Shown: one piece after another, positions 9,421 to 38,910 of the stretch
Layout: each line of letters begins with the position of its first letter
How positions within the stretch are numbered: position 1 is the stretch's first letter
Program-made: the position numbers and the translations under genes
Assembly: GCA_030040425.1 (NCBI GenBank)
Contig: JASHTS010000148.1
Coordinates: 1 to 40,397, forward strand
Source: Acidobacteriaceae bacterium
GTDB taxonomy: Bacteria; Acidobacteriota; Terriglobia; Terriglobales; Acidobacteriaceae
Direction: 5' to 3'
DNA length: 40,397 nt
Notes under the pieces: generated by a model
Database searches by the model: none
The model's input: only the letters and a program-made list of their open reading frames with translations
What the model was told of the DNA's origin: nothing

Positions 9421-11058
9421 CTATTGCAGAGTCCCTCCCACGTAGTTGATTCCTTGCTCGGGATGATGCGGGTCTACCACTTCGAAGACCACATCGTCGC
9501 CGGTCTTGAGCTTGTCCACCTCGGCTTCAAACTGATCCTTCGTGGCCGTGGGCTGCCGGTTGACGTGCGTAATGACGAGACCGGGCTCCAGGCCCTGCAG
9601 GTCGGCGAACGAGCCCGTGCGCACTGACTCGATCTCCACGCCCGAGTTGTGAATCTTGCCGGCAATGGTCTGCGAAAGATCGCGTACCACCAGGCCGAGC
9701 TTGGTCTCACTCGGGTCGCCGGGGGTCTCGGGGTTTACCGGCGGCTGATTTCCGGCGAGCTCGGCAAACACCTTGTCGCGATCGCCAATGGTGATGGTCG
9801 TATCCTGCTGTTTGCCGTCGCGCAGGAAGCCGAGGCGGATAGTCGAGCCCGGCTTGCGGCTGGCGATTTCGTTCACCAGATCGTCGCCGTCTTTCACGGA
9901 GCGGCCATCGATGGAGACGATGATGTCTCCCGGCTTCATGCCCGCCTTATCCGCGGGCCCGCCCTGCTGCACTTCCTGCACCAGAACGCCGTTCTTGAAG
10001 CCGTATACGCGATTCACCGCGCTTGAAAGCCCTTCGCGGAACTGGATGCCGATGGACCCGCGCACCACCTTATGGCTCGGCCCGATGAGGTCGTTGTACA
10101 CGTCGACCACGGTGTTGGAAGGCATGGCAAAGCCGATTCCTTCATAGCCCGCCGACTGCGTGTAGATGGCCGTGTTGACGCCGATCACGTTGCCGTTCAT
10201 GTCGAGGAGCGGTCCACCGGAGTTGCCGGGATTGATGGCTGCGTCCGTCTGGATAAAGTGCTGAAACTGGCCTGGTGCGCCCTGATCGATGGTCCGGTTC
10301 TTGGCGGAGATGATGCCTGCGGTCACGGTTTGCGCCAGCGCAAACGGGCTGCCGATGGCCTCAACCCAGTCGCCCACCTGCGCCTCGTCGGAGTTGCCCA
10401 TCTTCACGGTAGGCAGCGGCGTATTGGCGTCGATCTTAATCACGGCAAGATCGGTGGCCTTGTCTATGCCAATCACGCGCGCAGGCCTTCCCAGGTCCTG
10501 GGTATCCGGGTCGGTGGAAAGCTTGACGTAGATTTTGTCGGCTTTGTCGATCACATGCTCATTGGTGATGATGTAGCCTTTGGAATCGACGATAAATCCC
10601 GATCCGAGGGACTCCTGCACCTGCCCGCCGTTGTCGCCCTGGTCAGGCTGGCCGGGAACCTGTCCGCCGAAAAAGCGGTTGAAGAAATCCTGGAAATTGT
10701 CTTCTCCCTGACCCTGATCGTCATCCTCTCCGTCGTCTCCCGGATTCTGCTGATTGGGCTCGCTGCGGAAATGGAAGTTCCGGCGGCCGCGATTGTCAGA
10801 TTGCTTCGGCAAGGTCTGGGTGTTGATGTTGACTACGGCAGGCGCCACTTCGTGGGCTATCTTCACGAACTCGTTGGGGGCAATGGCTGAGTTGACGATC
10901 TTGAGCGGAGTGGCATCCGCGCTGGAGTCTTGCTGTTCCTGTCCATGGACGCCGTGCGCTGCATAGGATCCTGCCAGAACGGCTGCCGTAAGGGCGGCGA
11001 GCACCAGAAACGTCGAAGCGAGACGGCGAGAGCGCAGGCGTTCGAAGAACGATTTCAT
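9421..11058 (-). CDS. Periplasmic DegP/HtrA-family serine protease
   Basis: 545-residue Do-type serine endoprotease/chaperone that degrades misfolded envelope proteins. The start is the ATG at 11058, with GAGGT 11 nt upstream; an in-frame TTG six codons earlier overlaps this Shine-Dalgarno. A hydrophobic N-terminus (STFLVLAALTAAVLAGS) serves as signal or anchor. The trypsin-like domain has the triad His168 (TNEHVI), Asp203 (ATDLAV) and Ser280 (GNSGGP); two PDZ domains follow at roughly 335-430 and 455-540 (GIQFREGLSS; GVEIESVRTGSF). Between signal and protease is a Gln/Asp/Gly-rich segment (PGDDGEDDDQGQGED) longer and more acidic than usual, equivalent to the regulatory LA-loop region. Monocistronic, with a tandem repeat in its leader. 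Confidence 0.93.
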   Translation of the reverse strand: MKSFFERLRSRRLASTFLVLAALTAAVLAGSYAAHGVHGQEQQDSSADATPLKIVNSAIAPNEFVKIAHEVAPAVVNINTQTLPKQSDNRGRRNFHFRSEPNQQNPGDDGEDDDQGQGEDNFQDFFNRFFGGQVPGQPDQGDNGGQVQESLGSGFIVDSKGYIITNEHVIDKADKIYVKLSTDPDTQDLGRPARVIGIDKATDLAVIKIDANTPLPTVKMGNSDEAQVGDWVEAIGSPFALAQTVTAGIISAKNRTIDQGAPGQFQHFIQTDAAINPGNSGGPLLDMNGNVIGVNTAIYTQSAGYEGIGFAMPSNTVVDVYNDLIGPSHKVVRGSIGIQFREGLSSAVNRVYGFKNGVLVQEVQQGGPADKAGMKPGDIIVSIDGRSVKDGDDLVNEIASRKPGSTIRLGFLRDGKQQDTTITIGDRDKVFAELAGNQPPVNPETPGDPSETKLGLVVRDLSQTIAGKIHNSGVEIESVRTGSFADLQGLEPGLVITHVNRQPTATKDQFEAEVDKLKTGDDVVFEVVDPHHPEQGINYVGGTLQ

Positions 11059-11069
11059 AGAGTTCAATG

Positions 11070-11111
11070 ACCTCAAAACTCGGACCTCAAAACTGGGACC
11101 TCAAAGTGCGG
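11070..11111. repeat. Tandem 14-bp (double-heptad) repeat in the leader of the protease gene
   Basis: Six consecutive heptamers: ACCTCAA, AACTCGG, ACCTCAA, AACTGGG, ACCTCAA, AGTGCGG (three 14-bp units). Read on the minus strand each unit supplies a GAGGT Shine-Dalgarno-like core, the last being the ribosome-binding site of the protease gene. The rest of the 314-bp gap 11059-11372 holds no gene that I can support. Confidence 0.8.
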
Positions 11112-11196
11112 ACCCCTCCGGCATGCGCCTCGAGTCACCAATTCTCAGTTTGATGCACCAACCCACAGTATAGCCAGTTGCGAACGCCGCATGCGG

Positions 11197-17430: not shown

Positions 17431-17465
17431 AGCTTCTAACTTTTAGCTCCTGGCTTCTAGCTTAA
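17431..17465. repeat. Heptamer array filling the aroA-phosphatase gap
   Basis: Five consecutive heptamers: AGCTTCT, AACTTTT, AGCTCCT, GGCTTCT, AGCTTAA. The array starts 3 bp from the aroA start codon and runs into the phosphatase stop codon (17462-17464), so it makes up nearly the whole 33-bp intergenic region. Confidence 0.75.
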
Positions 17466-19273
17466 CGAACGCGGAGCACGATGATGGTCTCGTCATCGAA
17501 GCGGTCTTTGCTGCCCTGAAAGCGGGTGACGTCGGCGAGGATCTCGTCGGCAATCTCCTGAGCCGGGCGGTCGCGGTTGGCGCAGAGCAATTCTGCGAGC
17601 CGCTCCTGGCCGTACATCTCGTCCTTGTCATTCTCTGCGTCCAAAATGCCGTCGGAGACAAAGACGATGGCATCGCCCGGTTGCGTAGCCAGGTTGAATT
17701 CTTCGTAGGTTACGTCGGGAAACATGCCCAGGGGAAAGCCCTCCGCCTTGACGGTGAGCGATTCGCCGGCGCGACAGAAGACCGGCTGCACGGCGCCGGA
17801 GTTGGCCACCTGCAGGGTCTGGTTTTCGTCGTTCCAGAGCGCATAGAGCATGGTCACGTATTGTGAATCGAGCCTGCGCTCCTGCAGCGAGTCATTCAGG
17901 CTCTTGAGCATCTCTGCCGGCCCGAGTTGTTGCTGTGCGGCCGAGCGCATGATGCCGCTCACCAGCGCGGCAAAGAGCGCAGCAGGCGCGGCTTTGCCGC
18001 TTACGTCGCCGAGAACGATGGCGGTGCGGCTGGGCCCATACTCGATGAAGTCGTAGAGGTCGCCGCCGATGGAGCGCGCGGGAAGAAAGCGCACCGCCAG
18101 ATCGGCATGTTCGTGCACAGGTGCGTGCTGGGGAAGCAAACGGAGCTGCACTTCGCGCGCCATGGCCAGATCGCGCTCGAGCTGCCGTTCCTGCCTTCGC
18201 ACGGCCTGATAGAGGCGCGCATTTTCGATGGCGATGGCAATCTGCGAACCGAGCGTAGTGAGAATGCGCTCGTGCCCCTCGTTGAAAAAGCCCGTGCGCG
18301 TGTGCTCGAGATCGAGCACGCCGATGACGCGGCCCTTGTAAAACAACGGCACGATGAGCTCCGAGCGGGTCTCCGGATTCATCTCGAGATACCGCGGATC
18401 CTTGTGCACGTCGGGCACGTTGATGGGCCGCCACTCGCGCACCGCCGCGCCCACAAGGCCGCTCGTGACCGGGATGCGGCGCATGGGTGCATGGGAGTAG
18501 CCGAAGCGCCACGCATAGCGCGTGATGAGCACCTCGCCTTTCTCATCGAGCAGCATGATGCTGAACATCTGGTAGTCGATGAGGCGGCGCAGAAGCTGGC
18601 CGACGCGTTCGAGGAGGGGATTGAGATCGAGGATCGAGGCCAGTTCCACCGCGATCTCATTGAGCACCTCAAGCGTCTGCGCCTGGCGCGAGACACGCGC
18701 ATAGAGCCGCGCGTTTTCAATGGCCTGCGCAATGCGCGACGCGGTGACGGTGAGCAGATGCAGGTGCTCGGGGCGAAAGTAGCCGGCCTCCTCGCTTTCA
18801 ATGTCCATCACGCCAATAAGGCGGTTTTTGGCAATCAGCGGCACCGCCAGTTCCGAGCGCACGTCGGGGTTGGCGGCGACGTAGTGTTCTGAGGTGGAGA
18901 CGTCATTGAGCAGCATCGGCAGGCGTGTGAGAGCCACCTGGCCCACGATGCCTTTGCCCAGGGGCAGGCGTATGCGCTCCGCCTGGGGCGTGTGGCCGAT
19001 CTGGAAGCGCATGCGCAGGTCGTTGGTGCGGTCGTTGAGCAGGAAGATGGCGAAGATGCGGTAATTGATCACCGCGCGCACCAGCTCGGAGGTGCGATTG
19101 AGCAGCGTCTGCAAGTCGAGCGTGGTGTTGAGCGTGTCCGTGAGCTTTAAGAGGAACGCCGCGTCCACCGGCTCGATGCGGGGATTGAGCGGATCGAGAG
19201 CCGAAGATTCCGCAGGACGATAATCGCCTTCGAGCTCGTGCGGCGCGGACGGAGTTGGCGGGGTTTCCGGCAT
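17462..19273 (-). CDS. GAF-GAF-PP2C serine phosphatase (RsbU/SpoIIE type)
   Basis: 603-residue signalling phosphatase that should dephosphorylate an anti-anti-sigma (STAS) protein in partner switching. Two GAF sensor domains lie at about 45-205 and 207-375, each ending with an IAxAIENARLY helix; a charged helix (RQERQLERDLAMAREVQLRLLP) links to the PP2C domain at about 395-603. Metal-binding motifs are present: IGGDLYDF, LGDVSGKAAPAALFA, FVSDGILDAEN and DDETIIVLRV. No STAS, anti-sigma kinase or sigma factor gene is adjacent, so its target is elsewhere. The ATG lacks a clear Shine-Dalgarno. Probably transcribed ahead of aroA, an odd pairing. Confidence 0.9.
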   Translation of the reverse strand: MPETPPTPSAPHELEGDYRPAESSALDPLNPRIEPVDAAFLLKLTDTLNTTLDLQTLLNRTSELVRAVINYRIFAIFLLNDRTNDLRMRFQIGHTPQAERIRLPLGKGIVGQVALTRLPMLLNDVSTSEHYVAANPDVRSELAVPLIAKNRLIGVMDIESEEAGYFRPEHLHLLTVTASRIAQAIENARLYARVSRQAQTLEVLNEIAVELASILDLNPLLERVGQLLRRLIDYQMFSIMLLDEKGEVLITRYAWRFGYSHAPMRRIPVTSGLVGAAVREWRPINVPDVHKDPRYLEMNPETRSELIVPLFYKGRVIGVLDLEHTRTGFFNEGHERILTTLGSQIAIAIENARLYQAVRRQERQLERDLAMAREVQLRLLPQHAPVHEHADLAVRFLPARSIGGDLYDFIEYGPSRTAIVLGDVSGKAAPAALFAALVSGIMRSAAQQQLGPAEMLKSLNDSLQERRLDSQYVTMLYALWNDENQTLQVANSGAVQPVFCRAGESLTVKAEGFPLGMFPDVTYEEFNLATQPGDAIVFVSDGILDAENDKDEMYGQERLAELLCANRDRPAQEIADEILADVTRFQGSKDRFDDETIIVLRVR

Positions 19274-19343
19274 CGGCGTAGAGAGGAATCATACAGCAGG
19301 AGATGCGGTTCGGCAGTCTGCGAACGGAACTAAACTTGTACCT

Positions 19344-19886
19344 ATGATACCGGTCGGCTACATGGCGAAGATCTCATGCAAGAAGCCGGATTTCCTTCAG
19401 GCGGAATCGATTGTCGATGTCTATTCCGTCTCCTCCTGCGTGAATGAGGAGTTCGCGGATTATATCGGCCTCTGGAGGCACAACGGCTATTGGCTGTTCG
19501 ATTCGCCGAGGATCATCAGGGAAATCGCGGAAGAGAAGTCGATCGACGTCAAGGATTCGCTTTTGTTCTACTACGAGGCCTATGAAAAGGAGTTTACGGG
19601 CGAGGCCTGGAGGCAATTCGCGCCGGAGGCTGGAATGGCGACAAAGATTGAAAAGCCCGCGGAAAAGAGACTCGAAGGATTCGATGTAGTCACGTTCTTC
19701 GCCGGGAACTCCCCGGAATGTTCCCCACTTTCGTGCAACAGCCTGGCGGATACCCTGTCGTCCAACAAACATTGTCTGTTCGATTCATTCGAGATGGCAA
19801 AATCTCACTTGGATGCCGGGGACTTCATCGGGTGTGAGCACGGGCCATATCGCATCTTCGCAGTTTATTCCGTCCCTTGGCCCTGA
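19344..19886 (+). CDS. Conserved hypothetical protein (180 aa), function unknown
   Basis: Soluble 180-residue protein without signal peptide or transmembrane helix. Notable segments are YIGLWRHNGYWLFDSP, LLFYYEAYEKEF, LEGFDVVTF, the Cys-rich SPECSPLSCN, and a C-terminal CEHGPYRIFAVYSV; I recall similar features in uncharacterised proteins of other bacteria, but assign no function. Base composition is clearly less GC-rich than its neighbours. The start may be the ATG at 19344 or 19362; neither has a good Shine-Dalgarno. The last codons (PWP, stop) fall inside a CCCTGNN heptamer array, so the present C-terminus may have been reshaped by the repeat. Divergent from the phosphatase gene. An immunity- or toxin-associated role is conceivable but unsupported. 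Confidence 0.7.
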   Translation: MIPVGYMAKISCKKPDFLQAESIVDVYSVSSCVNEEFADYIGLWRHNGYWLFDSPRIIREIAEEKSIDVKDSLLFYYEAYEKEFTGEAWRQFAPEAGMATKIEKPAEKRLEGFDVVTFFAGNSPECSPLSCNSLADTLSSNKHCLFDSFEMAKSHLDAGDFIGCEHGPYRIFAVYSVPWP

Positions 19887-19922
19887 TCCCTGACCCCTGA
19901 CCCCAGTTCCCTGGTCCCTGCC
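19874..19922. repeat. CCCTGNN heptamer array overlapping a stop codon
   Basis: Seven consecutive heptamers: CCCTTGG, CCCTGAT, CCCTGAC, CCCTGAC, CCCAGTT, CCCTGGT, CCCTGCC. The first two units encode the end of the 180-aa protein, including its TGA stop at 19884-19886; the array ends 4 bp before the stop of the convergent deoC. Confidence 0.85.
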
Positions 19923-19926
19923 TTTT

Positions 19927-20682
19927 TCACTCGGCGCCGAGTTCGCGCAGGATGGCTACCGAGGCCGACGCGCCGATGCGGTTGGCGCCGGCATCCAGCA
20001 GGGCGCGCACATCGTCGAGCGAGCGAATGCCGCCGGCTGCCTTCACGCCGCAGCGTCCGCCGGCTACGCCGCGCATCAGCGCTACGTCGGCGGCATTTGC
20101 GCCGCCCGATGCGAAGCCCGTGGAGGTGCGGATGAAGTCCGCGCCGGCCTGGATGGCGATCTCGGCGGCGCGCAGCTTTTCTTCCATGTTGAGCAGCGAG
20201 GTTTCCAAGATGACCTTGAGCAGCGCGCCATGATGGTGCGCGACGCCGGCGACGGCATGAACGGTGTGCTGGACAGCGTGGTGATCGCCGCCTTTGAGCA
20301 GGCCGATGGGAATCGCCATGTCCAGTTCGCGCACGCCCAGCCGGGAAAGCGAGGCGGCCTCATGGCGCAGCGTGGAAACCAGGGAAGCGCCGAACGGAAA
20401 ACCAAGGACGGCGCCTACCTGGACTCCGCTGCCGGAGAGTGCGTTGACCGCAACGGAGGCCCAGACCGGGTTCACCATGGCGCAGGCAAAGCGATAACGT
20501 TCGGCTTCCTCGCAGAGCCGTTCGATCTGCGCGCGCGTAGCCTCGGGATGGAGCAGTGTGTGATCGATTATGGCAGCAAGAGATTGCCAGTTGGCGAGAG
20601 CCTGGGCGGCAAATGCAGGCGCGTCGAACGTACCATTGTCAAATTCCAGGTCGGATTCCTGGATCGGGGTCATAGCTTTCAT
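19927..20682 (-). CDS. deoC: Deoxyribose-phosphate aldolase (DeoC family) with altered active site
   Basis: 251-residue TIM-barrel aldolase normally cleaving 2-deoxyribose-5-phosphate to acetaldehyde and glyceraldehyde-3-phosphate. The ATG at 20682 has AAGGAG 9 nt upstream; the frame continues upstream but only as an antisense-like shadow of hpt. Family marks: IDHTLLHPEAT, AVLGFPFGAS, ELDMAIPIGLLK (Asp121), KVILETSLL and CGVKAAGGIRSLDD (Lys214, equivalent to E. coli Lys201). In the hallmark FIKTSTG segment, where Lys167 of E. coli forms the Schiff base, this protein reads FIRTSTGF: Arg185 replaces it (CGC codon). Either Lys214 takes over or activity is changed or lost. Downstream of hpt in a probable salvage unit. 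Confidence 0.9.
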   Translation of the reverse strand: MKAMTPIQESDLEFDNGTFDAPAFAAQALANWQSLAAIIDHTLLHPEATRAQIERLCEEAERYRFACAMVNPVWASVAVNALSGSGVQVGAVLGFPFGASLVSTLRHEAASLSRLGVRELDMAIPIGLLKGGDHHAVQHTVHAVAGVAHHHGALLKVILETSLLNMEEKLRAAEIAIQAGADFIRTSTGFASGGANAADVALMRGVAGGRCGVKAAGGIRSLDDVRALLDAGANRIGASASVAILRELGAE

Positions 20683-20693
20683 AGGTAAAGGCT

Positions 20694-20810
20694 CCTTGCC
20701 GTACAAACCGGGCTCTGCTTCGGCCTTTGGGCAATCTCCGGACACCGAGTATAGTGCACCCCGGTATCCGGGCCAACTGAATAGATGCAGGATAGGGCGG
20801 TACGGCAAGG
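20694..20810. repeat. Inverted repeat in the hpt-deoC gap
   Basis: CCTTGCCGTAC (20694-20704) and GTACGGCAAGG (20800-20810) are perfect 11-bp complements 95 bp apart, and between them lies the small hairpin CCCGG-TAT-CCGGG around 20759-20772. The left arm abuts the deoC Shine-Dalgarno, so pairing in the minus-strand mRNA could affect deoC translation. Confidence 0.45.
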
Positions 20811-20840
20811 GATCGCCGGCAGGGTACCGAAGTGTGATGG

Positions 20841-21386
20841 CTATTCGCCTGGAGCCGACGGCATCAAACAGATATCGGGCAGGTTGCGATAGCGCTCGGC
20901 ATAGTCCATTCCGTAGCCGATGACAAAAAGATTCGGTATGGAAAAGCCTACGTAATCGGCGTTGATGTTTTCGATCCGGCGAGAAGGTTTGTCGAGCAGC
21001 GCGGCGATGCGCAGCGTCTTCGGATGCTGCTGAAGGAAGAGTTTGCGCAGGTATGCGAGCGTGAGGCCGGTGTCGAGGATGTCTTCCACGACAAGAACAT
21101 TCTTGCCCTCGATGGGCTGGTCGAGGTCTTTGATGAGCTTGACCGCGCCGGAGGAACGTTGCCCGCTGCCGTAGCTGGAAACGGCGACAAAGTCGAAAGT
21201 GGCATCGGCATGAATGGCGCGTGCCAGGTCGGCCAGAAACGGCGCGGCGCCCTTGAGCACGCCGATCATCACCAGCCGCTCGCCGTTCAGGTCGCGGGTA
21301 ATCTGGGCGCCCATCTCGGCAACACGTTCGGCGATCTGCTGCCGGGAATAAAGAACTTCGAGTCCCTGATTGGTCACGGTGGGCAT
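20841..21386 (-). CDS. hpt: Hypoxanthine phosphoribosyltransferase
   Basis: 181-residue purine-salvage enzyme making IMP or GMP from hypoxanthine or guanine and PRPP. The PRPP-binding loop VVEDILDTGLT lies at about 99-109; GVLKGAAPFLADL and SSYGSGQRSSG supply the other loops, and FVIGYGMDYAERYRNLPDI is the conserved C-terminal segment with the base-binding region. The ATG at 21386 is preferred over a GTG two codons earlier. It is 158 bp upstream of deoC on the same strand, a sensible nucleoside-salvage pairing. Confidence 0.95.
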   Translation of the reverse strand: MPTVTNQGLEVLYSRQQIAERVAEMGAQITRDLNGERLVMIGVLKGAAPFLADLARAIHADATFDFVAVSSYGSGQRSSGAVKLIKDLDQPIEGKNVLVVEDILDTGLTLAYLRKLFLQQHPKTLRIAALLDKPSRRIENINADYVGFSIPNLFVIGYGMDYAERYRNLPDICLMPSAPGE

Positions 21387-21500
21387 GCACACAGTATCAG
21401 GCCAATTATCCTTGCGCGCGCCTGTGTAAATCGAGCTTTGAATTCAAGCGGTTTCGGGCTCGAACCCGCGGGAGGGCAGCCGCGTCTATACTAGGAAGAG

Positions 21501-22283
21501 ATGTATCCGTTTATTCATATTGGGCACTTTAATCTCCCCACCTTCGGCCTGATGCTGTGGCTGGCTGCCGTGGCCGCTGCGATCGTGGTCGACCGGGGTT
21601 TCCGTCGTGCGCACATTGACGCCGATGCGGTGGGGATCGTGGCCGTAACCGTGGTGGCCGGCATCGTGGGCGCCAAGATATGGCATGTGCTCGACACGCC
21701 TGCCGATTTTCACGAACTGGGCTGGCGCGTGCTCTACGATCCAGCCGGATTTGCCTGGTACGGCGGGCTGACCTTCGGCATCGCTGCGCTCGTGTTTCAG
21801 GGCTGGCGTGCCAAGATCGGCGCGCTGCGCACGCTCGACCTGGCGGCGCCTGCGGCCGCTGTCGGCTACGGGCTGGGGCGCATCGGCTGCTTTCTGTCGG
21901 GCGACGGCTGCTACGGAATTCCCACCAAGATGCCCTGGGGCATGAGCTTTCCCCACGGCATCGACCCCACCACGGTGCGCGTGCATCCCACGCCGCTCTA
22001 CGAGATGGCCGCCGGGCTTCTCATCGGCTTGTGGCTGTGGCGCAGAGGCGGCAAGCCGCATGCCAGCGGGTCCATCCTGGGCCTGTACCTGCTGCTGAGC
22101 GGCATTGCGCGCTTCCTGGTTGAATTCATCCGCCGCAACCCCAAGGTGCTGTGGGGGCTTTCCAATGCGCAACTGGCCAGCGCCGGAGCGGCGCTCGCCG
22201 GCGTCGGCATCCTGGTGTGGACGGCGACGCGGCAGGCCAAAAGAGCCGAGCCGGTGACAGCGGCGGTCGAAAAGCCGGCCTGA
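21501..22283 (+). CDS. lgt: Prolipoprotein diacylglyceryl transferase (Lgt family)
   Basis: 260-residue integral inner-membrane enzyme with about seven hydrophobic segments; the family transfers diacylglycerol from phosphatidylglycerol to the lipobox cysteine of prolipoproteins. It opens with MYPFIHIGHFNLPTFG, carries the signature-like GLGRIGCFLSGDGCYG, HPTPLYEMAAG and RFLVEFIRRNP. Compared with E. coli Lgt, the essential His103 position (FHGG) is WYGG here and Asn146 of GRLGNF is Cys; both substitutions occur in other Lgt clades as far as I recall, so this is a variant and not necessarily inactive. AGGA 5-6 nt before the ATG supports the start. Single gene, divergent from hpt. Confidence 0.9.
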   Translation: MYPFIHIGHFNLPTFGLMLWLAAVAAAIVVDRGFRRAHIDADAVGIVAVTVVAGIVGAKIWHVLDTPADFHELGWRVLYDPAGFAWYGGLTFGIAALVFQGWRAKIGALRTLDLAAPAAAVGYGLGRIGCFLSGDGCYGIPTKMPWGMSFPHGIDPTTVRVHPTPLYEMAAGLLIGLWLWRRGGKPHASGSILGLYLLLSGIARFLVEFIRRNPKVLWGLSNAQLASAGAALAGVGILVWTATRQAKRAEPVTAAVEKPA

Positions 22284-22332
22284 CCCTGCCTGCGGCTGAC
22301 TCCTGGACCAACTGCTTCGACCCGAAACGCGT

Positions 22333-25161
22333 TCAGAATGAAAAGAACGCCTGGAAACTGAAGGCGCGGTTGCCGGGCGTCGCGCTTTGAAAGCCCGGCG
22401 CTAGAGCCTGCGACTGATTGAAGAGCGGCGAGAGCAGAACGCCATTGGGCGGGGCCAGATTGACCACGTTAAAGAGATTGGCCGCGCTCAAGACAAACGT
22501 GAGGTTGTAGCGCCGGGGCGCGGACTCATCCAGGCGCACCGATCCGCTGCCCCCGCTCAAACCACGGCCGCTCACGCTGCCTCCCGTCTGGTAGCTTTGT
22601 CCTTCCTTGGCGGCGGCCATGCGCGGTCCCACGCCAATCACTTTGCTCAGGCGCAGGTGAACCACGGCGTTTGCCGGACCCGTCCCGGCTCCGAAGGGAA
22701 CCATGCGCTCGCCTTTTCCGGTGGGATCGGTATCCAGGCAGCCGTACTGCGTTGCCATGACATTGGCTGCGCCGCAGGCGCCGTAGGTGGGCCGCGCGTT
22801 GAACTGATTGCTCCCGGTCGCGTCGCTACCGATGGTCAGGTTGTAAGGCGTGCCCGATTGCGCCACCAACAGGGAACTCACGCTGACGCCGAAAGGGGCA
22901 TTCCACGAGCCGACCAATAGAAGCCGCTGCCGGTTGTCAAAGGTTGCGCGGCCGTAATCAAGGCCCGGGTCCTGGGGCACCGAAGGAATATAGTACGCCC
23001 CCTGCGTATCGCTCTTTGCTTCATTCAGCAGGTAATTTGCATTCACCGTCAGGCGCTTGAGCCGGACGCTGGCGGTGAAGATGAGCTGATTTTGGCGGTA
23101 AACGCCGCCCGACTGGAACTGATAGTTATCGATTGCAGGAGGTGAACCGGTGACGGTATAGGAGGCAACATCGAAGGACGGAGCGCTTACGTTGTTGGAA
23201 AGATACTGGTGAACACCCCGGGTATAAAGATAGGTTACATTGGCCATGATTTTTCCGGTGACCTGCCGGTCGACGCCGATGCCGGTTTGCATATCGAGCG
23301 CGGCGTGGAAGTGCCGGTCAATGGATTGATAACTGGGAAAGGAACCCGGCGTAGAACTCAACACGGAGAGCGGTTCCGGCGCTGAGGGATCGAAAAAATC
23401 CGGATCTTCGACCACGTAACCCGTCGCATTGACGTCATTGAGATGGATGGCCTTGATCACATAGGGAGTACCCGAGTTAGCGCTGAAGAAGTTCGGCACC
23501 GTGAACCGGTCATAGAACCATCCGGAGCCGGCGCGAATGACGGTCTTCGGCTGCCCTGCGCCACTGCCGCGATCGGGACTCCAGGCAATGGCGAGCCGTG
23601 GCGCCCAGTCGGCATGATCGCGAATCCGATTCTGGCCCTCGAGCCGGAGGCCCGCGGAAAGATTGAGATTAGGCCTCCAGTGCCAGTCATCCTGAAAGAA
23701 AAATGCTCCATCGAAGAGCAGGACGCTGGCCAGGGGATTGTTCACGATCGTGCTTGTATACAGGGCAGGCGTTCCCGACTGGTACGCGTCGACGGTATCG
23801 AAGGTGTAAATGCCGTTCATTCCCGCAGTCGAGTAGCTTTGGTCGTCGTACAAGCGGAGGCGCGTTCCGAAGCGGAGCGTGTGGGCGCCGGTAATCGCAG
23901 TTGAGTAGTTCTGCAGCTCGAAGTTGTTCTGTGAGTCGCGCGCAACGCCCGCGGGGCTGCCTCCGCCGCTGAAAGCTCCCTGGACCACGAGGGATGGGCT
24001 TCCGTTCCCCGGCACCTGGTCGTTGTAAATGCGGCTCCATTGGAAATGGGTCTCGTTCACGAACTGCGCATTGGCCACGATGGTATCGCCGAACTGAAGG
24101 GCGTTTTCTTCGCTGATGACGTTGCTCGACTGCGAGGGCAGATCGAGCGCGCCTACGCCGCTCGCGTTCTGCCGGGTCCTGTAAAAGGAGTCGCGCAGGG
24201 TGAGCGTGCTTTTTCCAAGCTGAATGTCGATGCGCGGATTCGCGGAGAGATAATCGACCGGCGTCGGAAACGCCTCGGAGACAACAAGGCCTGTGTTCTG
24301 AGGATTGACTGCATCGACGATCGCCTGATTTTGCCGGGATACGTAATAGCCGCTGAAGAATCCGGAGGCGCGTTTGGAGAGCGGCCCGCTGAGATTGCCG
24401 ACGATGGCGTACTGGTAGTAGGTGGGTTGCGCAGCCACCAGCGGCACGGCGGTGTTCAGCACGGAATCATTCCCGCTGCTTGCTATGCTGCCCTCCAGTT
24501 TTTGCGTGCCGGGCTTGGTAATGACCTCCACGCGGCCGTAGCCCAGACGGTCGAACTCCGCCGAGAAGGGATTCTGGTTGACGCGGACCTCGAGGATCGA
24601 CGACTTGGGGGGAAGCTGATCTCCGGCGAAACCGTCGATGTAAATTTGCCCGCCACTCGGACCTGCTGCGGGCCCGGCCAGCGCCTGCAGCTCGTTGCGC
24701 AGCTCGTCGGGGTCGTCGGAAAGAGCATTGAGAGCATTGCCGCTCAGCACCATTGCGCTCGAGTTCTGATCGGCGTTGAGGCCGAGCCCGCCCGGCTGGC
24801 CGGAGATGGTCACGTTCTGCGTCTCTACGGCAATCTTGAGCAGGGCCGTGACCTCCCGCGTCCGGCCCGCAGTCACGACGACACCGGAGATGGTTTGCGG
24901 CGAGAATCCCCTGGCCTCGAGAGAGATCGAGTAAATGCCTGGCGCGAGCGCAGCAAAGGCAAACAGGCCGTCGGCTCCGGAATGGGTCTGCAGAGTTAAG
25001 CCGGCACCCGTCACGATGACCCGGGCGCCGGGGATGGCCGCTCCGCTGGGGTCGAGGACGATGCCGCGAAGCTCTCCCGTTTGGCTCACAGCCCTCGCCG
25101 GCGCAAGCAGCGGGAGGAGCGCCAGCGCAAGAAAACCCAGCAATCGCAGACCGAACTTCAT
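22333..25161 (-). CDS. TonB-dependent receptor with carboxypeptidase-regulatory domain (Oar-like)
   Basis: 942-residue outer-membrane transporter. A signal peptide (LLGFLALALLPLLAPARA) is followed by a carboxypeptidase-regulatory-like beta domain at about 28-115 (GELRGIVLDPSGAAIPGARV), a plug region at about 120-225 containing IYIDGF, NPFSAEFDRLGYGRVEVITK, and a long beta-barrel rich in alternating aromatic strands that ends AFSFQAFFSF, the terminal Phe recognised by the BAM machinery. This architecture is greatly expanded in acidobacteria and is thought to import glycans or other large ligands. AGGGGA precedes the ATG closely. No ligand-processing gene is adjacent; SprT-like and secreted protein genes lie upstream on the same strand. 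Confidence 0.9.
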   Translation of the reverse strand: MKFGLRLLGFLALALLPLLAPARAVSQTGELRGIVLDPSGAAIPGARVIVTGAGLTLQTHSGADGLFAFAALAPGIYSISLEARGFSPQTISGVVVTAGRTREVTALLKIAVETQNVTISGQPGGLGLNADQNSSAMVLSGNALNALSDDPDELRNELQALAGPAAGPSGGQIYIDGFAGDQLPPKSSILEVRVNQNPFSAEFDRLGYGRVEVITKPGTQKLEGSIASSGNDSVLNTAVPLVAAQPTYYQYAIVGNLSGPLSKRASGFFSGYYVSRQNQAIVDAVNPQNTGLVVSEAFPTPVDYLSANPRIDIQLGKSTLTLRDSFYRTRQNASGVGALDLPSQSSNVISEENALQFGDTIVANAQFVNETHFQWSRIYNDQVPGNGSPSLVVQGAFSGGGSPAGVARDSQNNFELQNYSTAITGAHTLRFGTRLRLYDDQSYSTAGMNGIYTFDTVDAYQSGTPALYTSTIVNNPLASVLLFDGAFFFQDDWHWRPNLNLSAGLRLEGQNRIRDHADWAPRLAIAWSPDRGSGAGQPKTVIRAGSGWFYDRFTVPNFFSANSGTPYVIKAIHLNDVNATGYVVEDPDFFDPSAPEPLSVLSSTPGSFPSYQSIDRHFHAALDMQTGIGVDRQVTGKIMANVTYLYTRGVHQYLSNNVSAPSFDVASYTVTGSPPAIDNYQFQSGGVYRQNQLIFTASVRLKRLTVNANYLLNEAKSDTQGAYYIPSVPQDPGLDYGRATFDNRQRLLLVGSWNAPFGVSVSSLLVAQSGTPYNLTIGSDATGSNQFNARPTYGACGAANVMATQYGCLDTDPTGKGERMVPFGAGTGPANAVVHLRLSKVIGVGPRMAAAKEGQSYQTGGSVSGRGLSGGSGSVRLDESAPRRYNLTFVLSAANLFNVVNLAPPNGVLLSPLFNQSQALAPGFQSATPGNRAFSFQAFFSF

Positions 25162-25428
25162 GTTCCCCTGTTTGCGTCGGCAACTCGCAACTGGCCGAGT
25201 AGCAAAATCAAACTATGCCCGTCGCCAAAACGAGCGACAGAGCCACTCTTTGCCCCGCCAGGTCTCGCAGATGGGGAAAGTGCCGCCTTGACGAACCGAT
25301 TGCCCCGATGGAGCGATTCCGGCCCGGGGGTCATGGCGGGAAAAGATAGATATGAAACTTCGGTTAAGAGTTTCTCATGGCTAACGGAAAGTGCGAAGCA
25401 AAATTTGCCGGAATGCGGAACGCGGCGG

Positions 25429-26121
25429 CTAAAGGCGCTTCAGAAACGCCAGAGCTTCAGCCAACTGCGGAAAGCGCGCTTCCTCGGCCTTGAACTCGCG
25501 CGAATGCACACAGCGGCGCAGGCCGCGCATGCGCACAGGGTATTTAAGGTGAAGCATCTCGTGATAGAGCAGGTACTCGAGCGCGTAGCGAGGGCTCGAG
25601 GGCCGGTCGAAGACGCGGCTCACCACAATGGTGTTATGCGCGGCGTCGTAATGGCCGAGCGAGCGCTTGGCCAGGTGCTCGCTCCAGGTGAGCTCGGGCC
25701 GGCCCAGCAGCCCGCTGAAGAAGCGCAAGTTGAGCGAGTCGAAGATCTCGTCCAGGTGAAAGTACCGGCCTTCGGGGCCGAAGTAGCGCTTGCTGCCGCG
25801 CGCCGTGCGAATCAATTCCGTCTGCCGCGTAACGGCGGCGCTTGAAGCGAAGCGCTTGAAGCGCAGGTTGTGCGCGGCATCAACCGGCTTGCGAGGGAAG
25901 TAAAGCTTCGACAGCAAAATGTGGGCGATGGCGCGGATCACGCTTTCCGGCGCGCCTTCGAGCAGATCGGAAAGGCTGACGAAGATCTGCCCCTTGCGCA
26001 GGCGGATGGTCGTATTCAGAGACGTAAACCGCCGGAAGCGGATCTGCAGGGGCGGCATGGGCGCTCGTGGCCGCAGTACCCGGTATTCCTCCTGAAAAAT
26101 GGGGACAAAGTCGGGGATCAC
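25429..26121 (-). CDS. SprT-like zinc metalloprotein
   Basis: About 230 residues. A C-terminal HExxH-type site, YHEMLHLKYPVRMRG, followed by CVHSREFKAEEARFP with a further His, matches SprT/M48-like putative metallopeptidases; the upstream SRVFDRPSSPRYALEYLL helix fits too. The N-terminal third (IRLRKGQIFVSLSDLLEGAP) is a conserved companion region. No signal peptide, so cytoplasmic. The start is unclear: GTG at 26121 (or TTG one codon earlier), without a Shine-Dalgarno, while a good GGAGGA at about codon 12 is not followed by a usable start until the ATG at Met22. Substrate unknown; some relatives act on DNA-protein crosslinks, which cannot be assumed here. Confidence 0.8.
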   Translation of the reverse strand: MIPDFVPIFQEEYRVLRPRAPMPPLQIRFRRFTSLNTTIRLRKGQIFVSLSDLLEGAPESVIRAIAHILLSKLYFPRKPVDAAHNLRFKRFASSAAVTRQTELIRTARGSKRYFGPEGRYFHLDEIFDSLNLRFFSGLLGRPELTWSEHLAKRSLGHYDAAHNTIVVSRVFDRPSSPRYALEYLLYHEMLHLKYPVRMRGLRRCVHSREFKAEEARFPQLAEALAFLKRL

Positions 26122-26146
26122 CAAGAGGAGAATATCAGGGTCATGG

Positions 26147-26223
26147 ACAGGGGACAGCGGATAGGGAATAGGGAAATGGGACTAGGGACTGGGGAACAGG
26201 GAACAAGGAACAAGGAACAGGGA
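26147..26223. repeat. Eleven-unit heptamer array (plus strand NNAGGGA, minus strand TCCCTNN)
   Basis: Consecutive heptamers ACAGGGG, ACAGCGG, ATAGGGA, ATAGGGA, AATGGGA, CTAGGGA, CTGGGGA, ACAGGGA, ACAAGGA, ACAAGGA, ACAGGGA, with a decayed unit on each side. Read on the minus strand it has the same CCCTG core as the array at 19874-19922. It occupies the leader region upstream of the SprT-like gene. Confidence 0.85.
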
Positions 26224-26255
26224 ACATTAGATCGCGATCGAGGCGGGCACTCATC

Positions 26256-26283
26256 GCTGACCACTGATTTCTGAGAACTGAAT
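26256..26283. repeat. NCTGANN heptamer array abutting a stop codon
   Basis: Four heptamers GCTGACC, ACTGATT, TCTGAGA, ACTGAAT ending exactly at the base before the stop codon of the 175-aa secreted protein gene. With the array at 26147-26223 it makes up most of the 162-bp gap 26122-26283. Confidence 0.7.
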
Positions 26284-26811
26284 TCACTGCGGCTCCGCGC
26301 GGTCCTGGCCCTTTTCGTCCTTGTGTTCCTTGAAGTACGCGGTCTGGTCGGCGGTGATCTGCTTGGCTTGCGCAGCAAGGTCGTTGCTGCTGTCGATGGC
26401 GTCTTCGCGGGAAAGCTGAAATCCGGGCTCGCTGGGCAGGCCGTTCAGGAGCGCTTGCCAGCGCTGGACCCCTTCGTTCAAGCCTTTCAGGCTCTTGCGG
26501 ATATCGGCCTTGCGGTCAGAATACACGTCAAGATTGTCGCCCAGTTCATCCATCAAAGCGGCGAAGTCCTGAAGCTCATTGTCGAGGCGGAAAGTGCGGG
26601 CGCTCGTGTGCGCGCGGGGGATGAGGCCCTTGATGGTGTCGGCGCGCTCGTTGAGAAACTTGACGTACAGATCGACGCGGGCGACCGGGTCGATGCCGGC
26701 TTCGGCGATCTGATCCTGCTGGGTTTCCGACAGTGGTTCGCGCTTTACTTTCTGCGCGCCGAGAGGCGCGGCGACCAGAAGACACAGCAGAGTGGCAGCC
26801 AAGAAGCGCAT
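26284..26811 (-). CDS. Secreted helical protein, function unknown
   Basis: 175 residues with a clear signal peptide (LAATLLCLLVAAPLGAQ) and a mature part that is almost all predicted helix, with charged heptad-like stretches such as LDNELQDFAALMDELGDNL and DIRKSLKGLNEGVQRW, and a highly charged C-terminus (KEHKDEKGQDRAEPQ). No known domain. It follows a second small secreted helical gene by 69 bp on the same strand; the two share general layout (signal, then Tyr/Leu-rich first helix, then a long amphipathic helix ending in LNEG or LNRT) and may be distant paralogues or partners. Likely periplasmic. No clear Shine-Dalgarno. Confidence 0.75.
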   Translation of the reverse strand: MRFLAATLLCLLVAAPLGAQKVKREPLSETQQDQIAEAGIDPVARVDLYVKFLNERADTIKGLIPRAHTSARTFRLDNELQDFAALMDELGDNLDVYSDRKADIRKSLKGLNEGVQRWQALLNGLPSEPGFQLSREDAIDSSNDLAAQAKQITADQTAYFKEHKDEKGQDRAEPQ

Positions 26812-29063: not shown

Positions 29064-29321
29064 ATGGAACGGATTGAGGCAAAAAGCGTTCTCAGGGACT
29101 GGTGGAGTTATCGGGGTGAACCGATGACTGTTGTCTCGATGCAACACATACCTTTGACCCATGCTTATCTTTGCCAGGATTGCAATTCGATAGGAAACTG
29201 CGCTCAACATTGTCCGGCTTGCGCTTCAGAAGCGCTGATGGGTCTTGCTGGCGTGCTGAACCGCAAAACCGAAGAAGCCGCGCAGATAAGCTATGCGCGA
29301 CGGGCTGCGCTGGCGGCATAA
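29064..29321 (+). CDS. Small Cys-rich (zinc-ribbon-like) protein
   Basis: 85 residues from an ATG with GGGGGA 9 nt upstream. The C-terminal half contains CQDCNSIGNC-x3-CPAC, that is CxxC-x5-C-x3-CxxC, followed by ASEALMGLAGVLNRK; five cysteines this close suggest a zinc ribbon or knuckle. I recall short proteins with a similar CPAC-ASE-LAGVLNR ending in acidobacteria, which supports reality, but no function is known. The frame is open 18 codons further upstream, without a ribosome-binding site. It stands alone between the TPR gene and uvrA; a DNA-, RNA- or protein-binding role is only a guess. Confidence 0.7.
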   Translation: MERIEAKSVLRDWWSYRGEPMTVVSMQHIPLTHAYLCQDCNSIGNCAQHCPACASEALMGLAGVLNRKTEEAAQISYARRAALAA

Positions 29322-29416
29322 GAAGTAGAAAAAAGATTGAAGAGTCTTCACCCGCATTCCAGCGGATTTGCGCCTGCTTTCCCCAGATAGCTGTTTCCCA
29401 TGCGCCATGTTCGCCG

Positions 29417-36398: not shown

Positions 36399-36441
36399 CT
36401 TGGAACACCTCAAAAGCGGGGCTAGCGGAGTTCGAAAGAAA

Positions 36442-36465
36442 GCAAGTCAGCGAGTTAGCAAGTCA
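36442..36465. repeat. Octamer tandem repeat in the aldolase-kinase gap
   Basis: Three units GCAAGTCA, GCGAGTTA, GCAAGTCA followed by GCG, within the 90-bp gap between the aldolase start and the kinase stop. It is similar in style to the heptamer arrays but has period 8. Confidence 0.65.
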
Positions 36466-36488
36466 GCGCGCCGTGCGCCGGACCGACC

Positions 36489-37586
36489 CTAGCGCGCGAT
36501 GCGCGCAGACCCTCCCTTGATCAGCCGCTCGACTTCGGCGAGCGTGGCCATGCTGGTGTCGCCCGGCGTGGTCATGGCGAGTGCGCCGTGAGCCACGCCG
36601 CAGCGCATAGCCCACTCAATTCCTTTGCCGGCGATGAGTCCATAAATCAGCCCGGAAGCAAAGCTGTCTCCGCCTCCCACGCGGTCAAGGATATCGATTT
36701 CGCGCTGCGGCACGTGGACGATTTTGTCTTCATAGAGCGCGATGGCTCCCCACGCGTTGCGGCTGGCCGTGTGCGCCGTGCGCAGCGTACTGGCGACGAG
36801 CTTCAGATTCGGATAGGCCGAAACGACCTCGCGCAGCATCTCCTCGTATCCGGCGATGGGCAACTCGGCAAAGTCTTCGCTCGCGCCCTTAACCTGTACA
36901 CCGAGCATCGCGGAGAAGTCTTCTTCGTTTCCAAGGAGCAGATCCACTTTGCGCACAATCTCGCGATTCACCTCCTGCGCCTTCGTTTTTCCGCCGATCG
37001 ACTTCCACAGCGAATCACGAAAATTCAGGTCGTAGGATATGGGCGTGCCGTGCTTGCGCGCCGCAGCCATGGCCTCCACGGCCACTTCGGTCGTGGAGGA
37101 CGAAAGCGCCGCAAAGATGCCGCCGGTGTGAAACCACTTCGTGCCGTTCTGATCCCCGAAGATTTGTTCCCAATCAAAGTCGCCGCGCTTTACCTGGCTG
37201 ATCGCGGTGTGTCCGCGATCGGAGCAGCCAACCGCCCCGCGCACGCCGAAGCCGCGCTCAGTAAAATTCAGGCCGTTGCGCACGCTGCGGCCGACGCCGT
37301 CATACGGAACCCATTTGAGCAGGGATGTATCCACGCCGCCCTGCAGAATGCAGTCTTCCACCAGCCGGCCGACGGGATTATCAGCCAGCGCTGTGACAAT
37401 GGCGGTGCGCAAACCAAAGCAGCGACGCAACCCGCGAGCCACGTTGTATTCGCCGCCGCCCTCCCACACCTCAAAATGCCGCGTGGTATGAATGCGGCCT
37501 TCGCAGGGGTCGAGGCGCAGCATCACTTCGCCCAGGCTGAGGCAATCCCAGCGGCGCGAGCCATCCGGAATGGATATCGTTTCCAC
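36489..37586 (-). CDS. PfkB-family kinase, 2-keto-3-deoxygluconate kinase-like
   Basis: About 365 residues from a GTG at 37586; the frame is open for a further 188 codons, but those are antisense to the Gfo/Idh gene and lack family features. The conserved N-terminus CLSLGEVMLRLDP and EVWEGGGEYNVARGL, the mid-part ISYDLNFRDSLW and LLLGNEEDF, and the C-terminal RVGGGDSFASGLIYGL (catalytic Asp in GGGDSF) fit KdgK-like ribokinases, which phosphorylate 2-keto-3-deoxy-gluconate at O6 for the following aldolase. GGAG is only 2-3 nt before the GTG, so the exact start is unsure. First gene of the minus-strand series and divergent from the Gfo/Idh gene. Confidence 0.85.
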   Translation of the reverse strand: METISIPDGSRRWDCLSLGEVMLRLDPCEGRIHTTRHFEVWEGGGEYNVARGLRRCFGLRTAIVTALADNPVGRLVEDCILQGGVDTSLLKWVPYDGVGRSVRNGLNFTERGFGVRGAVGCSDRGHTAISQVKRGDFDWEQIFGDQNGTKWFHTGGIFAALSSSTTEVAVEAMAAARKHGTPISYDLNFRDSLWKSIGGKTKAQEVNREIVRKVDLLLGNEEDFSAMLGVQVKGASEDFAELPIAGYEEMLREVVSAYPNLKLVASTLRTAHTASRNAWGAIALYEDKIVHVPQREIDILDRVGGGDSFASGLIYGLIAGKGIEWAMRCGVAHGALAMTTPGDTSMATLAEVERLIKGGSARIAR

Positions 37587-37638
37587 GTCTCCACATAATC
37601 TATCGCATCGAGCCGCCGCGATTGGCGAATCGGCCGGA

Positions 37639-37656
37639 CGTCCGCTAATGCGGACG
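37639..37656. promoter_or_regulatory. Hairpin/palindrome in the divergent intergenic region
   Basis: CGTCCGC-TAAT-GCGGACG, a perfect 7-bp dyad centred between the divergent kinase and Gfo/Idh genes (gap 37587-37739), a natural place for a regulator shared by both transcripts. Confidence 0.4.
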
Positions 37657-37739
37657 GCTGGGCAGACAGCGTACACTGCATGGGACAAAGACCAGCCCGG
37701 CGTCGGGCGCAACACAATCGGGGAGGGCGAGAAGCAACG

Positions 37740-38889: not shown

Positions 38890-38910
38890 AGCTTTCGGCT
38901 TTTTGCTTGT
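38890..38910. repeat. Short NGCTTNT-type heptamer run after a stop codon
   Basis: AGCTTTC, GGCTTTT, TGCTTGT, starting 5 bp after the Gfo/Idh stop codon. The units resemble those of the array at 17431-17465. Only three copies, so weaker than the others. Confidence 0.5.

What the first reader, a model, noticed from the sequence alone, without database searches (positions are those of the whole stretch)
17431..26283. Several intergenic gaps are built from degenerate tandem heptamers with different unit sequences
Seen directly: heptamer arrays at 11070-11111 (double heptads), 17431-17465 (NGCTTNT), 19874-19922 (CCCTGNN), 26147-26223 (NNAGGGA, the reverse of the CCCTG core), 26256-26283 (NCTGANN) and 38890-38910 (NGCTTNT), plus an octamer array at 36442-36465. 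They keep period 7 through substitutions, lie in gaps next to start or stop codons, and recur as related families at distant loci. Established parallel: heptanucleotide STRR sequences of cyanobacteria. Inference: an active process makes or spreads short period-7 arrays in this lineage. I know no description of this for acidobacteria.
Basis: partly seen in the sequence, partly recalled or inferred. Interest (0 to 1): 0.72.

Follow-up and report, generated by a model that had tools for sequence, protein, structure and literature searches.

The report
Strand-oriented heptamer repeats at gene edges
Gaps between genes in this soil bacterium hold short, fast-changing rows of 7-letter DNA words that nearly always face the same way relative to the nearest gene edge, and the same facing rule shows up in many unrelated bacteria.

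Summary
In a 670-kb sample of this genome, noncoding islands number 25 at lag 7 against 1, 6 and 3 at lags 6, 8 and 9, and 0.0 per simulated replicate. In the window, only 11069-11114 (a 14-mer), 19874-19922 and 26147-26223 exceed chance alone.

Read outward from the nearest ORF edge, start or stop alike, arrays run YAGGGRN, YAGTGRN or YAGCTNY: 64 outward, 5 inward within 30 bp. Opposite-strand neighbours within 200 bp are convergent 59 times, divergent 7. YAGTGRN arrays from many phyla obey it too (99 to 11). Orthologous gaps swap unit families and keep the facing (by eye).

Rehm et al. 2015 reported this geometry for G-rich heptamers of Xanthomonas and Nostoc. New here: it also holds for units without G-tracts and in many phyla, so G-quadruplexes cannot be its general cause. 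I think arrays are made locally, by a DNA-level process with a strand bias. The bias is shown; its machinery is inferred.

The parts
11069..11114 (.). Tandem 14-mer (GACCTCAAAACTCG, about 3 copies) just outside the start of the HtrA-like gene 9421-11058(-). Not a heptamer and does not follow the G-over-C outward rule.
   Evidence: score 67; 0 of 60 simulations at lag 14, 60 of 60 at lag 7
17431..17465 (+). YAGCTNY array (TAGCTTC type) filling the 33-bp gap between the start of aroA (17428, -) and the stop of gene 17462-19273(-).
   Evidence: Weak alone (29 of 60). A C-type array sits in the same place in L232 and L258
19869..19923 (-). YAGGGRN array (CCCTGAY on the + strand), outward from the stop of the deoC-like gene at 19927.
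   Evidence: 0 of 60
26141..26234 (+). YAGGGRN array outward from the start side of gene 25429-26121(-); left arm of a convergent pair.
   Evidence: 0 of 60; orthologous gaps
26256..26285 (-). Degenerate YAGTGRN-like array (CTGAYCACTGAT on the + strand), outward from the stop of gene 26284-26811(-); right arm of the convergent pair.
   Evidence: Not beyond chance alone (60 of 60); placement and facing fit the rule
36438..36470 (+). Octamer array of the GAGTYAGC family in the gap 36399-36488.
   Evidence: Weak alone (20 of 60); exact three-unit pattern has 5 overlapping hits at 3 other places of this genome
38890..38912 (+). Three degenerate GCTT units just after the stop at 38885 of a Gfo/Idh-type dehydrogenase gene (37680-38885, +).
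   Evidence: Not beyond chance (60 of 60); facing fits family C; gene

Best explanation
These are fast-turnover intergenic tandem arrays, mostly of 7-bp and sometimes 8-bp units. They are made and remade locally in spacer DNA by templated amplification: slippage-type duplication of units, plus inverted copying between the two edges of one gap. They persist and expand only up to functional DNA, such as a stop codon, a start codon or the -10 box of a promoter. Shown: the families, their mainly intergenic place, turnover in two orthologous gaps, the outward strand rule, the excess of convergent pairs, and the excess of same-family pairs. Inferred: that amplification is local rather than by a mobile element, and that the strand rule comes from a DNA-level, strand-directional step of making or keeping arrays rather than from a use of the RNA. 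The machinery of that step is unknown. No cellular role is needed to explain the data and none is shown.
For: Lag 7 leads outside genes. Outward rule in own genome plus G304: 64 to 5 within 30 bp, starts 20 to 0, stops 44 to 5; G304 alone, not used to define the rule, 21 to 3. 74% of 93 noncoding arrays lie within 30 bp of an edge against 52% for random placement in the same gaps. Convergent 59, divergent 7 without any gene model. All 13 gaps with both strands are strictly convergent and 9 of 13 pairs are of one family (permutation mean 4.6, p 0.0033). Other phyla 99 to 11; distant acidobacteria 29 to 4 for family A. De novo lag-7 arrays outside A and B have G over C outward in 60 of 72, and 31 of 37 once CAGT/CAGG-type cores are removed; lag-8 arrays 13 of 14. 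Array-free gap edges show no such skew in the own genome, G304 and the cross-phylum loci. Same gap, different families, same facing in relatives (read by eye). On the start side of gene 25429-26121 the arrays end just before a -10-like box that lies a few bases from the start codon, which suggests they are outside that gene's mRNA (promoter reading is mine).
Against: Direction of growth could not be shown: no consistent gradient of unit identity (62 to 42 over 174 arrays, p 0.10; G304 alone 6 to 0 with distal units more alike, p 0.03). Beyond 30 bp from an edge the rule vanishes (12 to 12; cross-phylum 35 to 28). Few B and C arrays in distant acidobacteria (2 outward, 3 inward within 30 bp). 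Family C has no G-over-C outward bias (3 to 5), so its facing needs another reading. Over all array-bearing gaps of the own genome, start edges as a class are not G-rich outward (13 to 24). In own genome plus G304 paired gaps are all between co-directional genes (13 of 13, against 521 of 801 gaps), which would also fit an RNA role. Slippage itself was not observed.
Confidence: 0.5

Rival explanations
1. RNA-level function: arrays are kept because, in mRNA, the repeat after a stop pairs with the complementary repeat before the next start and folds the spacer out, or because repeats bind an RNA-binding protein.
For: All 13 paired gaps of own genome plus G304 lie between co-directional genes; divergent gaps are depleted (3 of 65 array gaps against 151 of 801 gaps). 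Pairs tend to share a family. MacGregor suggests translational regulation for TAACTGA repeats (PMC4679880, abstract and passages).
Against: Across phyla, pairs also lie between convergent (9) and divergent (6) genes, with 18 co-directional and 4 unclear. The rule is alike at starts and stops, so the mRNA carries opposite strands at the two ends. Families differ in sequence within one genome, which no single binding protein explains. In one search start-side arrays end before a -10-like box.
Confidence: 0.2
2. A mobile element or element family spreads the arrays through the genome as its ends.
For: Families recur at distant loci; convergent pairs resemble terminal inverted repeats.
Against: With arrays masked, 34 array-bearing gaps share only octamer arrays that the mask missed, one 18-bp match and one 127-bp element in two gaps; 34 control gaps gave 0 hits. 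Orthologous gaps hold different families.
Confidence: 0.1
3. G-quadruplex formation selects both the unit and its facing, as considered for GGGAATC repeats.
For: Family A has GGG in each unit, and oligonucleotides of similar repeats form quadruplexes in vitro (PMC4692102).
Against: Families B and C have no run of three G yet keep the facing (B 21 to 1, C 13 to 0 within 30 bp; B across phyla 99 to 11).
Confidence: 0.04
4. A telomerase-like bacterial reverse transcriptase writes the repeats.
For: DRT10 makes tandem-repeat DNA from an RNA template (PMC12632851, abstract only). A strand rich in G over C that points 3'-ward away from functional DNA looks like a telomeric G-strand (recalled).
Against: Genus members with arrays but no RVT_1 match at E up to 0.001: G300 (99% complete, 14 overlapping B hits) and G305 (100%, 16 hits). 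RVT_1 may miss odd reverse transcriptases. Units differ between loci of one genome.
Confidence: 0.03
5. Chance repeats picked out by eye.
For: Four of the seven listed window stretches are reached by at least 20 of 60 simulations.
Against: Genome-wide excess, reversed-pattern controls of 0 in 31 genomes for B, C and the octamer, and the strand rule in data not used to define it (G304).
Confidence: 0.01

Closest known systems
GGGAATC / GGGGA(C/T)T heptamer arrays of Xanthomonas and Nostoc (Rehm et al. 2015, PMC4692102; sections 10, 13, 16 and passages read)
   Same: Degenerate intergenic heptamers genome-wide; convergent pairs (70 cases in Xcc, 75 in Xac); close to ORFs on the non-coding strand upstream and the coding strand downstream, which is the outward rule; under-represented between divergent genes; length and sequence vary between species.
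   Different: Theirs are G-rich and were read as quadruplex formers. Here families without G-tracts obey the same rule, several families share one genome, and octamers and many phyla are included.
TAACTGA direct repeats of Beggiatoaceae, some Cyanobacteria and Bacteroidetes (MacGregor 2015, PMC4679880; abstract and passages read)
   Same: Heptamers, intergenic, mostly facing the start codon; the facing equals the outward rule; TCAGTTA is close to TCAGTGR (family B). Indels of 7 nt between close strains are reported.
   Different: There one unit dominates and related heptamers are rare as repeats in that genome; mostly on the start side; horizontal transfer was suggested. Here several families coexist and stops are edged as often.
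STRR heptanucleotide repeats of filamentous cyanobacteria (recalled; seen only as mentions in search listings and in PMC4692102 passages)
   Same: Short tandem heptamers in spacers, several unit types in one genome.
   Different: Facing relative to gene edges was not found described in what I read.
Heptanucleotide excess among long simple sequence repeats (Mrazek et al. 2007, known only through passages of PMC4679880 and PMC4692102)
   Same: Heptanucleotides the most abundant class in most genomes; polymerase slippage proposed.
   Different: As cited there it concerns abundance, not strand or gene-edge geometry.

Membership tests
Intergenic heptamer arrays of the Xanthomonas/Nostoc kind (Rehm et al. 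2015) | Tandem 7-bp units, degenerate, dispersed and mainly intergenic | tested here: met
   25 of 28 lag-7 islands noncoding in the sample; 93 of 110 arrays of three or more units noncoding
Intergenic heptamer arrays of the Xanthomonas/Nostoc kind (Rehm et al. 2015) | Close to the ORF lying 5' of the repeat strand, whatever the ORF direction; convergent pairs | tested here: met
   64 to 5 within 30 bp; 59 convergent to 7 divergent
Intergenic heptamer arrays of the Xanthomonas/Nostoc kind (Rehm et al. 2015) | G-tracts in each unit that can form quadruplexes | tested here: not met
   Family A has GGG; families B and C have no run of three G. So the set as a whole is not filed under the quadruplex kind
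TAACTGA repeats (MacGregor 2015) | Unit TAACTGA | tested here: not met
   Family B read on the other strand is YCACTGA-like, one base off; no TAACTGA search was run in this genome, and it was not among the families seen
TAACTGA repeats (MacGregor 2015) | Repeats facing the start codon | tested here: met
   Starts 20 outward to 0 inward within 30 bp
STRR of cyanobacteria | Cyanobacterial STRR unit sequences | not tested
   Unit sequences recalled only; no comparison made
Phase-variation simple sequence repeats | Unit number varies between close strains and switches a gene | not testable with these tools
   One genome per species is held; between species, family and length differ in orthologous gaps
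MITE or other element with terminal inverted repeats | Conserved body between the terminal repeats | tested here: not met
   Masked centres of 34 gaps share no body apart from one 127-bp element in two gaps

The most novel reading that the evidence does not exclude
Across bacterial phyla one DNA-level process builds tandem 7-8-mer arrays with a fixed strand: the patterned (usually G-over-C) strand is the one whose 3' end points away from functional DNA, at both edges of a gap and whatever the direction of transcription. This is the geometry expected if arrays are written by 3'-end extension into breaks or gaps in spacer DNA, much as telomeric G-strands are written, with short reiterated templating and no telomerase. 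The Xanthomonas, Nostoc and Beggiatoaceae repeats and the acidobacterial families would all be products of it.
Probability: 0.12. Interest if true: 0.9.

Novelty: new variant of a known kind. Interest (0 to 1): 0.58.

Why it matters
Heptamer arrays are a common, unexplained feature of bacterial spacers. That one strand rule holds for unrelated unit sequences, in many phyla, at starts and stops alike, removes quadruplexes as a general cause and makes a lineage-specific binding protein unlikely as the sole cause. It points instead to how spacer DNA is made, repaired or kept, and turns an old curiosity into a testable question about strand-directional DNA synthesis or selection.

Tried and rejected
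Unit order: by eye, arrays of this genome seemed to run AAC, then ATC, then GTC outward. A within-array permutation gave z -2.4 for AA (and -2.2 for GA, 4 units) in the own genome, no such order in G304, and GT proximal (z -5.1) across phyla, the opposite of the guess. Rejected.

Homogeneity gradient: by eye, distal units looked more alike. A first test pointed the other way across phyla (76 against 45, p 0.0015), but its array ends were defined asymmetrically. With exact cores at both ends: 62 against 42 over 174 arrays, p 0.10; G304 alone 6 to 0 of 7, p 0.03. Not accepted.

Cis RNA hairpins limited to co-directional gaps: 13 of 13 in two genomes, not kept across phyla.

Telomerase-like reverse transcriptase: arrays occur in near-complete genus members without an RVT_1 match.

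Keto (G+T) strand as the common feature: weaker than G over C (48 to 22 against 60 to 12 in lag-7 'other').

Controls that failed: the reversed pattern equals the pattern; the reversed-unit control matches family A itself. In one search the reversed pattern is itself common in some genomes (G007 14 and 12 against 1 and 1; G064 136 and 148 against 39 and 35), so its counts are a rough guide.

Gene finder: a longest-ORF method gave 117 outward and 82 inward on the cross-phylum loci. I then wrote a codon-score method because many ORFs looked false; it gave 99 and 11. The change was made after seeing the first result. The gene-free test does not depend on it. Families and their outward strands were defined by eye on the own genome, so own-genome counts are not independent; G304, the cross-phylum loci and the distant acidobacteria are.
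Full report
The heptamer stretches, the 14-mer and the octamer were read directly. Tandem Repeats Finder lists four of them. The lag scan finds two islands at lag 7, five at lag 14, one each at lags 6 and 9, and none at the other lags from 4 to 15. Against 60 Markov copies of the window, 19874-19922, 26147-26223 and the 14-mer at 11069 are reached in 0 of 60; 17431, 26256, 36438 and 38890 are reached in 29, 60, 20 and 60 of 60. The list mixes firm and weak cases.

Genome-wide. The window is contig 223 of a 4.56-Mb draft, 75% complete; AGGGANNAGGGANNAGGGA has 69 overlapping hits there. In a systematic sample of 60 contigs (670,257 bases; contigs 38, 183 and 223 left out as already held), noncoding islands number 25 at lag 7 against 1, 6 and 3 at lags 6, 8 and 9, and ten simulated intergenic sets average 0.0 at lag 7. 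Islands at lags 6, 9, 12 and 15 are mostly coding. Lag 8 has a noncoding excess too (27 of 34 at the looser cut), with the octamer family GAGTYAGC and an eight-base form of family A, seen as a long array in L048.

Families. Three heptamer families were defined by eye from the own genome: A, YAGGGRN; B, YAGTGRN; C, YAGCTNY. Exact three-unit patterns: B in 21 of 31 genomes, 18 of the 19 of the genus, reversed control 0 in all 31; C in 12 of 31, all in the genus (own genome 2 overlapping hits), control 0; A in 55 of 297 genomes of the phylum, where the control is not clean.

The strand rule. 'Outward' is the strand read 5' to 3' from the nearest ORF edge into the gap. In 1.04 Mb of this genome plus 0.4 Mb of G304, 110 arrays of three or more units were found, 93 noncoding. 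Within 30 bp of an edge, 64 are outward and 5 inward (A 30 and 4, B 21 and 1, C 13 and 0; starts 20 and 0, stops 44 and 5); G304 alone gives 21 and 3. Beyond 30 bp it is 12 and 12. Of the 93, 74% lie within 30 bp of an edge, against 52% for random placement in the same gaps. Of 801 gaps of 20-800 bp, 65 hold arrays; the 13 with both strands are all strictly convergent, and 9 of 13 pairs are of one family (p 0.0033). Without a gene model, opposite-strand neighbours within 200 bp are convergent 59 times and divergent 7 times over the sequence sets examined (binomial p 2e-11).

Beyond the lineage. On those loci of 2,500 bases or more, the count is 99 outward to 11 inward within 30 bp (starts 30 and 3, stops 69 and 8), 19 and 14 at 31-100 bp, 16 and 14 beyond; 10 arrays were coding and 41 lacked a gene on one side. 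An earlier, cruder gene finder gave 117 and 82. Some loci share a genome, so cases are not all independent. Three distant acidobacterial genomes give 29 and 4 for family A, but 2 and 3 for their few B and C arrays; the stretches of two more (G191, G067) gave none. De novo lag-7 arrays outside A and B have G over C outward in 60 of 72, lag-8 arrays in 13 of 14, lags 6 and 9 together in 10 against 5; family C proper does not (3 against 5). Array-free gap edges have no such skew in the own genome, G304 and the cross-phylum loci, but starts of the distant acidobacteria do (0.12).

Turnover. Upstream of aroA, the own genome and two relatives (L232, L258) have a C array before the start; L240 has a convergent B pair ending before a promoter-like stretch; L253 has A and C arrays with octamers; others have none visible. 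Upstream of gene 25429-26121, a script called 19 of 30 loci syntenic (several with ill-defined gaps); A, B, C-like, octamer or no arrays are seen, with G-rich repeats after the stop and C-rich ones before the start side. Both were read by eye and not counted. The family changes while the facing returns, so the facing is remade rather than only inherited.

Cause. Quadruplexes fail as a general cause because B and C have no G-tracts. An RNA hairpin role fits two genomes (13 of 13 pairs between co-directional genes) but across phyla 9 pairs lie between convergent and 6 between divergent genes, with 18 co-directional and 4 unclear. Copying of an element finds no shared body. A reverse transcriptase is not needed. 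What remains is a local DNA process with a strand bias; I could not show its direction.

What is known. Rehm et al. (PMC4692102; sections 10, 13 and 16 and passages read) describe the same placement and convergent pairs for G-rich heptamers. MacGregor (PMC4679880; abstract and passages) describes TAACTGA repeats facing starts and cites Mrazek et al. 2007. Searches naming acidobacteria and the wider theme listed no paper on acidobacterial heptamer arrays; only open-licence papers are held and only listings were seen. DRT10 is known to me here from an abstract.

Identity. G304 and the genome holding L116 (record title Acidobacteria bacterium AB60) give the same aroA match at the same contig coordinates and E-value; AB60 is placed in Acidobacteriota. 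The window's genus therefore very likely includes AB60, and 'acidobacteria' holds.

Noticed in passing
G000 contig 127 about 29271-29397 (in L040) and L100 about 2481-2607: A 127-bp interspersed element (90.6% identical in the two gaps) with inverted ends GGTTGCATAAATGG...CCATTTATGCAACC, both copies sitting beside or within A-type arrays; looks like a MITE.
   Followed up: partly
L232 (G337), gap upstream of aroA: The gap holds another repeat with a palindromic core CGTCCCGGAGGGACG in two near copies, absent from the window's own gap.
   Followed up: no
L048 2543-2947: A long octamer array (AGGGAGCG/AGGGAACA units, G-strand at the left edge) with heptamer A arrays on the other strand at the right edge: the same core with period 7 and 8 in one gap.
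   Followed up: partly
G051 and G063 (distant acidobacteria): 1401 and 1267 overlapping hits of the family A pattern; the hits shown are mostly CAGGGTT and CAGGGGA units, far denser than in the window's genome.
   Followed up: partly
window 36489-38150: The ORF's kinase-type match covers residues 202-553 only, and its upstream part overlaps the dehydrogenase-like ORF 37680-38885(+); its true start is probably near 37580.
   Followed up: no
orthologues of window gene 25429-26121 (L261-L290): A -10-like TATNCT/TAATCT box lies within about a dozen bases of the GTG start in many species, suggesting a leaderless mRNA.
   Followed up: no
L289 (G327), gap upstream of the orthologue of window gene 25429-26121: A convergent array pair in which YAGTGRN units pass into a GTGTGA hexamer, so the period can shift inside one array.
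   Followed up: no
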